40,690 bases of DNA from an uncultured Bacilli bacterium (GTDB taxonomy: Bacteria; Bacillota_I; Bacilli_A; RF39; UBA660), in the NCBI GenBank assembly GCA_944329385.1, contig CALVIE010000005.1, positions 1 through 40,690 of the forward strand, in the 5' to 3' direction. A program made the position numbers and the translations under genes. Position 1 is the first letter of the stretch, and the number at the start of each line of letters is the position of its first letter. Below, one piece after another: positions 1,379 to 3,360 of the stretch. A model generated the notes under the pieces. It saw only the letters and a program-made list of their open reading frames with translations. It searched no databases and was not told the origin of the DNA.

Positions 1379-2029
1379 CTAAAGTTCAAATTTTATAATA
1401 TACCTTAAATCCTCCATTGCTTTATCTATATTCATCATACCATTTCCAATAGGATAATAAACAGGATATACATGGTAATTTTTCCCTGCTATATTTTTTA
1501 AAAAACTTTGTTTTCTGCACTGTGATACTGATATATTTTTATTTAATATAATAGAACTAACTTGATTTCCAAAAGTTATAATTATCTTAGGGTTAATTAT
1601 TTCTATTTCCTTACATAACAAATCAAGATATTGATTATAAACCGAATTAGGTAATACTCTTGCATCAACTTGAGTACACTTTCCAAGATTAGTTATAAAA
1701 TATTTATGTTGCTCTACATCACTATATACTAAATCAGCAAATGCTTCGTCCCATTCTTGTGATTTTCTCTTTTGAATTTCTTCATATATTTTTTCATCAA
1801 GTAACCCAATTCTATAAAATAATTTCCATATATTTTTTGTTCCTACCCACGGTGCTCTTTTACCTTTCCAATTAGGAGAAGAAGCAATATTCCGACCAGT
1901 TGGATTCATAAACACAAAACAAATATCTGGGTTATCTACACAGCCACCATTATATATAGATGTCAATCCCTTAGCTCCATATTCTTTCTGCAACTTGTCA
2001 TATTCTAAATTCAAATCACTTAACTCCAT
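1379..2029 (-). CDS. Uracil-DNA glycosylase superfamily-like protein
   Basis: 216 residues. The layout matches the UDG superfamily: FVFMNPTGRN (about 38-47) in place of the first catalytic motif, FITNLGKC (about 111-118), IIITFGNQV in the central strand, and YPIGNGMMN near the end where other families have an H-P-S loop. Family members remove uracil or related bases from DNA. Here the usual catalytic Asp/Asn and HPS residues are replaced, so activity and substrate are uncertain. The ATG overlaps the toxin stop codon (TAATG), implying translational coupling to the type III toxin gene upstream. The frame is intact while both flanking genes are broken. Confidence 0.65.
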   Translation of the reverse strand: MELSDLNLEYDKLQKEYGAKGLTSIYNGGCVDNPDICFVFMNPTGRNIASSPNWKGKRAPWVGTKNIWKLFYRIGLLDEKIYEEIQKRKSQEWDEAFADLVYSDVEQHKYFITNLGKCTQVDARVLPNSVYNQYLDLLCKEIEIINPKIIITFGNQVSSIILNKNISVSQCRKQSFLKNIAGKNYHVYPVYYPIGNGMMNIDKAMEDLRYIIKFEL

Positions 2030-2544
2030 TATTTAAACACCTTTTTATTTTCTTCCATTTTAATTAATTGTTCTAATATCTTATCAATATTAGGAAATAC
2101 AATATTTTTCATTCCATGATTATATAAATTTAAAACTTTATTAGCTTTATGTACAATTTCTATTTGTAATTTATTTGATAGTCTTATTGGCACCTTGTTT
2201 TTTATATATTGACTTTCCACATATTCATCAGTAACAGGAAACATGTTTTGTATTAAAAAAACACTATATATATTAGCAACATTACCAAAAACTATAGTAT
2301 CAATTGATGGCTTTTTACCTAATTTTATTTGTTTTTGAATTTTATTATTATAAATTTTTTGATATTTATCTATTTTTGTACTAACTGGAATAAACCATAT
2401 AATATTATCATATCTCTTACTTTTAAAACAAAAATAACATGGTCTTTTGTTCCCATTTTCTTTATTTTGCATTCATTCTTTATCATCTATAATTTCAAAA
2501 AATATATCTTTTATAAAATAAAAATAACCAACATCTATTTGCAT
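2029..2544 (-). pseudogene. Type III toxin-antitoxin toxin (ToxN/AbiQ, CptN-like), interrupted by in-frame TGA
   Basis: Toxins of this family are small endoribonucleases held inactive by a repeat RNA. The frame opens at ATG 2544 after a strong AAAAGGAG site with MQIDVGYFYFIKDIFFE, the conserved N-terminal strand (FYFIKDxFF). After 23 codons there is a TGA at 2475-2473. ATG 2472 follows at once, and the frame continues for 147 residues: MQNKENG, RPCYFCF, IWFIPVSTKIDKY (the S/T-x-K active-site strand), TIVFGNV, FLIQNMFPVTDEY. TTA (Leu) to TGA is one substitution, and Leu before M-x-NKENG is what I recall in relatives. Without the stop the product is 171 residues, a normal family length. TGA is a stop elsewhere in this window. 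Reinitiation at 2472 could give a shortened protein. The antitoxin repeats lie just upstream. Confidence 0.78.
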
Positions 2545-2571
2545 ATTCTAATACTCCTTTTATAATATTTA

Positions 2572-2595
2572 AGGCTCACCATTTCTGGCAAGCCT
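2572..2595 (-). terminator. Hairpin between antitoxin RNA and toxin gene
   Basis: The stem AGGCT / AGCCT has a 2x2 internal loop and an inner 3-bp stem closed by a 4-base loop. It is followed by an AT-rich but not pure-T stretch. Type III loci carry a leaky terminator exactly here, which keeps antitoxin RNA in excess over toxin mRNA. Confidence 0.65.
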
Positions 2596-2604
2596 CAATA
2601 ATTT

Positions 2605-2733
2605 ATTCACTCTCCCATTTATTAGTCGCTTAAAGAGGCAGCGACAAACACATTTATTCACTCTCTCATTTATCAGCCGCCAAAGAGGTGGCGACAAACA
2701 CATTTATTAAAAACAAAAATGTTCTTAAATATT
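2605..2733 (-). ncRNA. Type III antitoxin RNA: two tandem 50/51-base repeats
   Basis: Two near-identical units lie head to tail at 2656-2705 (first transcribed) and 2605-2655, flanked by partial copies. Each begins AAATGTGTTTGTCGC and ends GAGAGTGAAT. Each can fold a 6-bp hairpin. The stem is GTCGCC/GGCGGC in one unit and GTCGCT/AGCGAC in the other, so the closing pair changes from C-G to T-A with pairing kept. The loop carries CCTCTTT, complementary to the downstream GAGAGAG or GGGAGAG, which gives the H-type pseudoknot known for type III antitoxins. Location, repeat length, promoter, hairpin and toxin order all match ToxIN/CptIN loci. Confidence 0.82.
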
Positions 2734-2739
2734 GTATTC

Positions 2740-2769
2740 ATAATAGCATAAAATATAACATTATGTCAA
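2740..2769 (-). promoter_or_regulatory. Promoter of the type III toxin-antitoxin locus
   Basis: Perfect -35 TTGACA (2769-2764), 18-base spacer, extended -10 TGC-TATTAT (2745-2740). Transcription would start near 2733, about 30 bases before the first repeat. Confidence 0.75.
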
Positions 2770-2979
2770 CACTTTTTGAATATACTCTATTTATAATCTA
2801 TATCTTTCTTAAAAATTTACTAAACATTTTTACCATAATACAAAACTTCTATAACCGTCCTATCAGAATATATTTCTGCTCATAATTAGATATATTTGAT
2901 GTTGGTTGACAATAAGAATATTTGCCTAATTATATCATGAAAAAACACTAAAAACCTTTTCTAATACTTAATAAAACTA
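2770..2979. other. AT-rich gap with no supported gene
   Basis: Part of the 435-base gap 2545-2979. The lower part holds the antitoxin RNA, its hairpin and promoter. In the remainder I see no coding frame with a ribosome site. Confidence 0.5.
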
Positions 2980-3360
2980 CTACTTATTATCTTTCCACTC
3001 ATGATAAAGTATGTCTTTTAAAACTAACATACTATCTAATGAATTAAATCCATATTCTTTCTCTAAACTATTAAGTAACCTTCTTATCTCCTTCGCATAC
3101 TTCATTATATCAACCTTATCTAGATATTTAATAAGTATAGGATATTTCTTTCCCCAAGCATTTGTCCAATTAACTTTAGCTTCCTTTTCTTCATCTGTAT
3201 TTTTTATCACATCATATATTTCCTTAACATCAATATCAAATTCGGTTAACTCATCTAAAGATAAATTGTATAATTCGGCCAGTCTTTTAGCCTGATAAAT
3301 ATCAGGCACCGTCTATCCTGCCTTTTTCCTTGCTTGAAATAAACTATTACCTAAATTCAT
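2980..3360 (-). pseudogene. Xre-family regulator lacking its helix-turn-helix core
   Basis: After a GGAGGTG site, ATG 3360 opens MNLGNSLFQARKKAG, the first helix of a Xre/Cro regulator. A TAG at 3315-3313 follows, then the frame resumes with TVPDIYQAKRLAELYNLSL and DELTEFD, the segment that normally comes after the recognition helix and the conserved ISKWE motif. About 20-25 codons covering helices 2 and 3 are missing, with the TAG at the join. The C-terminal part (VNWTNAWGKKYPIL, EIRRLL, SMLVLKDILYHEW) is well preserved and typical of a common Firmicute Xre family. A GTG at 3309 could start a 109-residue product that cannot bind DNA through an HTH. Confidence 0.8.

What the first reader, a model, noticed from the sequence alone, without database searches (positions are those of the whole stretch)
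2029..2544. Type III toxin gene broken by a single in-frame TGA while its antitoxin remains intact
The frame from ATG 2544 has the family N-terminus, a TGA after 23 codons, and then the rest of the toxin in the same frame starting at an adjacent ATG. One substitution (TTA to TGA) explains it. It may be an inactivated toxin kept with a live antitoxin, a stop-reinitiation arrangement that lowers toxin output, or a population variant or assembly error. TGA is a genuine stop in neighbouring operons, so recoding is unlikely.
Basis: partly seen in the sequence, partly recalled or inferred. Interest (0 to 1): 0.8.

Follow-up and report, generated by a model that had tools for sequence, protein, structure and literature searches.

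The report
Recently broken CptIN toxin, antitoxin kept
A common bacterial toxin-antitoxin pair has recently lost its toxin to one premature stop codon while its RNA antitoxin and promoter still look intact; relatives show the same kind of toxin-first decay many times, so this is an ordinary case.

Summary
On the minus strand, ATG 2544 opens 23 codons, TGA lies at 2475-2473, and an adjacent ATG 2472 continues in frame to TAA 2029. The frame is a CptN toxin (type III, CptIN family: NCBIfam NF047359, 159 bits read through; PDB 4RMO). The CptI antitoxin upstream (two 50-nt units, 2705-2608), its promoter and the hairpin before the toxin are intact by sequence. All twelve close copies (L026-L037) lack this stop. 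TGA is a real stop here: RF2 is encoded, and TGA ends 4 of 34 window ORFs. Substitutions on the window's branch are still constrained (9 nonsynonymous, 10 synonymous; P = 8e-4 against neutrality), so the lesion is recent. The 147-residue restart product would lack strand 1, helix 1 and 9 of 38 strongly conserved positions, and is probably inactive. In the same bacterial family 73 full-span copies are stop-free and about 18 loci are broken; arrays remain at all 30 evaluable intact loci and at 10 of 18 broken ones. Best reading: an early stage of ordinary toxin-first decay. An assembly error or minor variant cannot be excluded without reads.

The parts
2740..2769 (-). sigma-70-type promoter TTGACA-18-TATTAT of cptIN
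   Evidence: 11 of 12 consensus positions; conserved in relatives
2659..2705 (-). cptI antitoxin unit 1 (47 nt core)
   Evidence: tandem repeat, period 50; all pseudoknot pairs kept
2608..2655 (-). cptI antitoxin unit 2 (48 nt core)
   Evidence: as unit 1
2570..2597 (-). hairpin between antitoxin array and toxin (no T-run)
   Evidence: -19 kcal/mol for the 63-nt stretch, z -5.1
2554..2560 (-). ribosome-binding site of cptN (AAAGGAG)
   Evidence: read from the sequence
2473..2544 (-). cptN 5' part: 23 codons of the family N-terminus and the premature TGA (2475-2473)
2029..2472 (-). remainder of cptN, 147 codons from the conserved Met25 codon to TAA
   Evidence: NF047359 136.6 bits; 4RMO
1379..2029 (-). 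UDG-like gene overlapping the toxin stop (TAATG), intact and constrained
   Evidence: Pfam UDG 1.4e-7; omega 0.13 against L026

Best explanation
This is a CptIN type III toxin-antitoxin locus whose toxin gene was recently inactivated by one nonsense change, while the RNA antitoxin remains structurally intact. In the intact system the RNase CptN cuts the repeat RNA CptI into pseudoknots that lock it (shown for E. rectale, PMC4627078). Here translation from the proper start ends after 23 residues. If ribosomes restart at ATG 2472 they make a protein without strand 1 and helix 1, probably unfolded or inactive. Losing the toxin first is the safe order of decay, since losing the antitoxin first would free the RNase. 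The array is probably still transcribed but unprocessed and without a partner, and will erode unless it protects against an incoming related CptN. Shown: the lesion as assembled, its privacy, its recency, antitoxin integrity by sequence. Inferred: loss of toxicity, continued transcription, later erosion.
For: Stop private: none of the 12 copies L026-L037 has it. Real stop: RF2 over cut-off, TGA ends 4 of 34 ORFs. Recent: window branch 9 N: 10 S against 4.4:1 expected if neutral (P 8e-4); at most about 40% of the branch can have been neutral. N-terminus needed: 5 of 21 invariant and 4 of 17 near-invariant columns lie in the lost 24 residues; the read-through model matches 4RMO at Z 20.6 over 150 residues, the 147-residue model at Z 15.0 over 125, with strand 109-112 no longer formed. 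Recurrence: independent toxin breaks in L035, L038, L043 and at about 18 loci of the family survey, including L131 with a slip deletion just before the same Met. Arrays at 30 of 30 evaluable intact loci and 10 of 18 broken ones.
Against: No reads, so the base itself is unverified. No expression or toxicity data. The constrained branch pattern would also fit a truncated but working protein. All known catalytic residues lie after Met25.
Confidence: 0.77

Rival explanations
1. The TGA is a sequencing or assembly error, or a minor or strain-level variant that the draft metagenome assembly happened to record; the population's toxin is intact.
For: The genome is a draft in 99 contigs, 81% complete. 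The downstream frame is fully open and the branch is constrained, as expected if the gene is alive in most cells.
Against: A second lesion, a 69-nt deletion in the neighbouring HTH gene, shows real decay nearby. Broken toxins recur in independent assemblies.
Confidence: 0.14
2. Stop-restart: ribosomes end at the TGA and restart at the adjacent ATG 2472, making a low dose of an N-terminally shortened, still toxic RNase that the antitoxin controls.
For: TGA and ATG are adjacent; the rest of the frame is open; catalytic residues known from 4RMO lie downstream (PMC4627078); L035 and L131 also have lesions before the same conserved Met.
Against: No relative shares the arrangement; no ribosome-binding site was gained at ATG 2472; the lost residues hold 9 of 38 strongly conserved positions and strand 1 plus helix 1; lesions before Met25 are not enriched (P 0.26).
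Confidence: 0.06
3. The toxin loss was favoured because the remaining array serves as an anti-addiction RNA that protects the cell from mobile cptIN cassettes with near-identical antitoxins.
For: Close cptIN cassettes of about 700 bp sit in unrelated flanks, which suggests mobility; array units are nearly identical among them; a single CptI repeat can neutralise (PMC4627078); antitoxins as anti-addiction modules are known for type II (PMC7354431).
Against: CptI is highly specific for its own toxin (PMC4627078). About half of broken loci, mostly deeply decayed, have lost the array, as expected without selection. No array-only locus was found in the genus.
Confidence: 0.02
4. TGA is read as an amino acid here (recoding).
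For: The frame continues after it.
Against: RF2 present; TGA ends 4 of 34 ORFs; Trp uses TGG; no relative has TGA at this place.
Confidence: 0.01

Closest known systems
CptIN of Eubacterium rectale (PDB 4RMO, PMC4627078)
   Same: promoter, tandem pseudoknot repeats, hairpin, CptN RNase; 37% identity over 150 residues, Z 20.6 for the read-through model
   Different: the toxin here ends at codon 24; the active-site triad reads S-T-K where E. rectale has S-S-R
Intact cptIN copies L026 and L027 (uncultured Clostridia)
   Same: same promoter, two-unit array, toxin 86-89% identical over its full length, same downstream UDG-like gene
   Different: toxin frame open; in L026 the HTH gene lies downstream and is intact
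Degenerated type II loci and orphan antitoxins (PMC7354431, PMC10790755)
   Same: antitoxin kept after toxin loss
   Different: the antitoxin here is an RNA array that is normally processed by its own toxin

Membership tests
CptIN type III toxin-antitoxin | CptN toxin sequence | tested here: met
   NF047359 136.6 and 159 bits, cut-off 90; 4RMO E 2e-24
CptIN type III toxin-antitoxin | tandem repeats of about 45-50 nt upstream that can form an H-type pseudoknot | tested here: met
   two units, period 50; 94.6% of cells paired, slid versions 50-61%; one pair with changes on both sides, so covariation support is modest
CptIN type III toxin-antitoxin | promoter before the array and hairpin between array and toxin | tested here: met
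   the hairpin lacks a T-run
CptIN type III toxin-antitoxin | intact full-length toxin reading frame | tested here: not met
   TGA at codon 24: a broken member by descent, not a functional one
CptIN type III toxin-antitoxin | toxicity, and neutralisation by the cognate RNA | not testable with these tools
   needs expression
ToxIN (Pfam PF13958 ToxN_toxin) | Pfam gathering score | tested here: not met
   20.3 and 18.7 bits, cut-off 25

The most novel reading that the evidence does not exclude
CptN can be restarted at its conserved Met25, so that lesions in front of it give attenuated, still antitoxin-controlled RNases, and such stop-restart forms arise repeatedly.
Probability: 0.05. Interest if true: 0.5.

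Novelty: new member of a known kind. Interest (0 to 1): 0.2.

Why it matters
It is a clean early stage of decay of a type III toxin-antitoxin locus: one lesion in the toxin, antitoxin untouched. With about 18 broken loci in one bacterial family, it allows an estimate of how often such RNA antitoxins outlive their toxins, which has been described mainly for protein antitoxins. By itself it is ordinary.

Tried and rejected
Rfam gave no CptI match at gathering or relaxed thresholds; this excludes nothing. PADLOC had no model for the toxin. Phage records and viral contigs gave no relative; plasmids gave only distant ones. No second cptN in the draft genome, so no evident replacement toxin, but the assembly is 81% complete. 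A search of the genus with the array found no closely similar solitary array; divergent arrays would be missed. Clustering of first lesions before Met25 was tested and not supported (P 0.26). The lower array rate at broken loci (10/18 against 30/30, Fisher 1e-4) is descriptive: I sorted the loci by hand, related loci are not independent, and the detector uses simple shuffles. L118 and L109 were left out because a contig end cuts the array region. A literature search for pseudogenes of type III systems found nothing on CptIN decay.

Full report
On the minus strand ATG 2544 follows a good ribosome-binding site (AAAGGAG, 2560-2554), runs 23 codons to TGA at 2475-2473, and the next codon, ATG 2472, continues in the same frame for 147 codons to TAA 2029. 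PDB 4RMO, CptN of Eubacterium rectale, is the only solved relative found by sequence. Pfam's ToxN model stays below its cut-off, so the precise family is CptIN.

The stop is private. A scan of one genome per species gave 55 relatives. The twelve closest that cover the region (L026-L037, 80-91% identical) all have a sense codon at that place, next to the same Met25. TGA is a true stop in this genome: RF2 scores above its cut-off, and TGA ends 4 of 34 long ORFs of the window.

The antitoxin side is whole by sequence. There is a near-consensus promoter, two 50-nt units (2705-2608), and a stable hairpin before the toxin. On twenty distinct units from relatives a two-stem pseudoknot pairs 94.6% of cells, while slid versions pair 50-61%; both window units pair fully. 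Covariation is modest: one stem pair changes on both sides (C-G to U-A). I proposed the structure from these sequences, so the comparison with slid versions leans towards it.

The lesion is recent. Window-specific changes polarised by outgroups number 9 nonsynonymous (stop excluded) and 10 synonymous. Neutrality predicts about 4.4 to 1 (P 8e-4), whereas the ratio of intact copies (omega 0.12) is compatible (P 0.18). At most about 40% of the branch can have been neutral; the best estimate is about 10%. The overlapping downstream UDG-like gene is intact and constrained (omega 0.13).

The restart product is probably inactive. Of 21 invariant and 17 near-invariant columns in 35 aligned proteins, 5 and 4 lie in the lost residues. 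AlphaFold models give Z 20.6 to 4RMO for the read-through form and 15.0 for the 147-residue form. The latter lacks strand 7-11 and helix 13-19, and the strand at 109-112 is no longer formed; that strand is next to the tyrosine (Tyr104 in E. rectale, Tyr113 here by the alignment) that places the scissile adenine (PMC4627078). The known catalytic residues all lie after Met25, so activity is not excluded, and models of truncated proteins are weak evidence.

Toxin breaks are frequent in this group. Among the close copies, L035 has a frameshift in the N-terminus with three antitoxin units kept, L043 a frameshift and a deletion with two units kept, and L038 an insertion of about 2.3 kb between one remaining unit and a truncated toxin. 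In 386 genomes of the same family 76 matches span the toxin, 73 of them without a stop (counted), and about 18 loci in all are broken by stops, frameshifts or deletions. A repeat array is found at all 30 evaluable intact loci and at 10 of 18 broken ones including the window. Loci with one lesion keep it; most deeply decayed ones have lost it. This is the order expected if the toxin must go first. Lesions before Met25 (window, L035, L131, L134) are not more common than expected from its share of the length (P 0.26).

The verdict is ordinary, recent inactivation of a CptIN toxin, with the antitoxin not yet eroded. Error or population variation remains open for want of reads. Anti-addiction use of the array is possible: copies with similar arrays sit in unrelated flanks, and one CptI repeat suffices to neutralise in E. 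rectale (PMC4627078). But CptI is highly specific (same paper), and nothing here requires it.

Noticed in passing
window 2980-3360 (-): A helix-turn-helix regulator gene is also broken: against the intact copy in L026 a 69-nt in-frame deletion removes part of the DNA-binding domain and leaves a TAG at the junction.
   Followed up: partly
window 1379-3360 and L026:2700-4770: The HTH gene lies upstream of cptIN in the window but downstream of the UDG-like gene in L026, so the neighbourhood has been rearranged; most other close copies share only the roughly 700-bp cptIN cassette, in unrelated flanks.
   Followed up: partly
window 1379-2029 (-): A uracil-DNA-glycosylase-like gene starts inside the toxin's stop codon (TAATG). 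Among the close copies this neighbour is found only in L026, L027 (cut by the contig end) and, as a remnant, L043.
   Followed up: partly
L131:872-1320: A small deletion between ATGATAAA direct repeats shifts the frame just before the conserved Met, with array and remaining toxin intact: an independent case much like the window.
   Followed up: yes
L038:519-3280: An insertion of about 2.3 kb separates a single antitoxin unit from a truncated toxin.
   Followed up: partly
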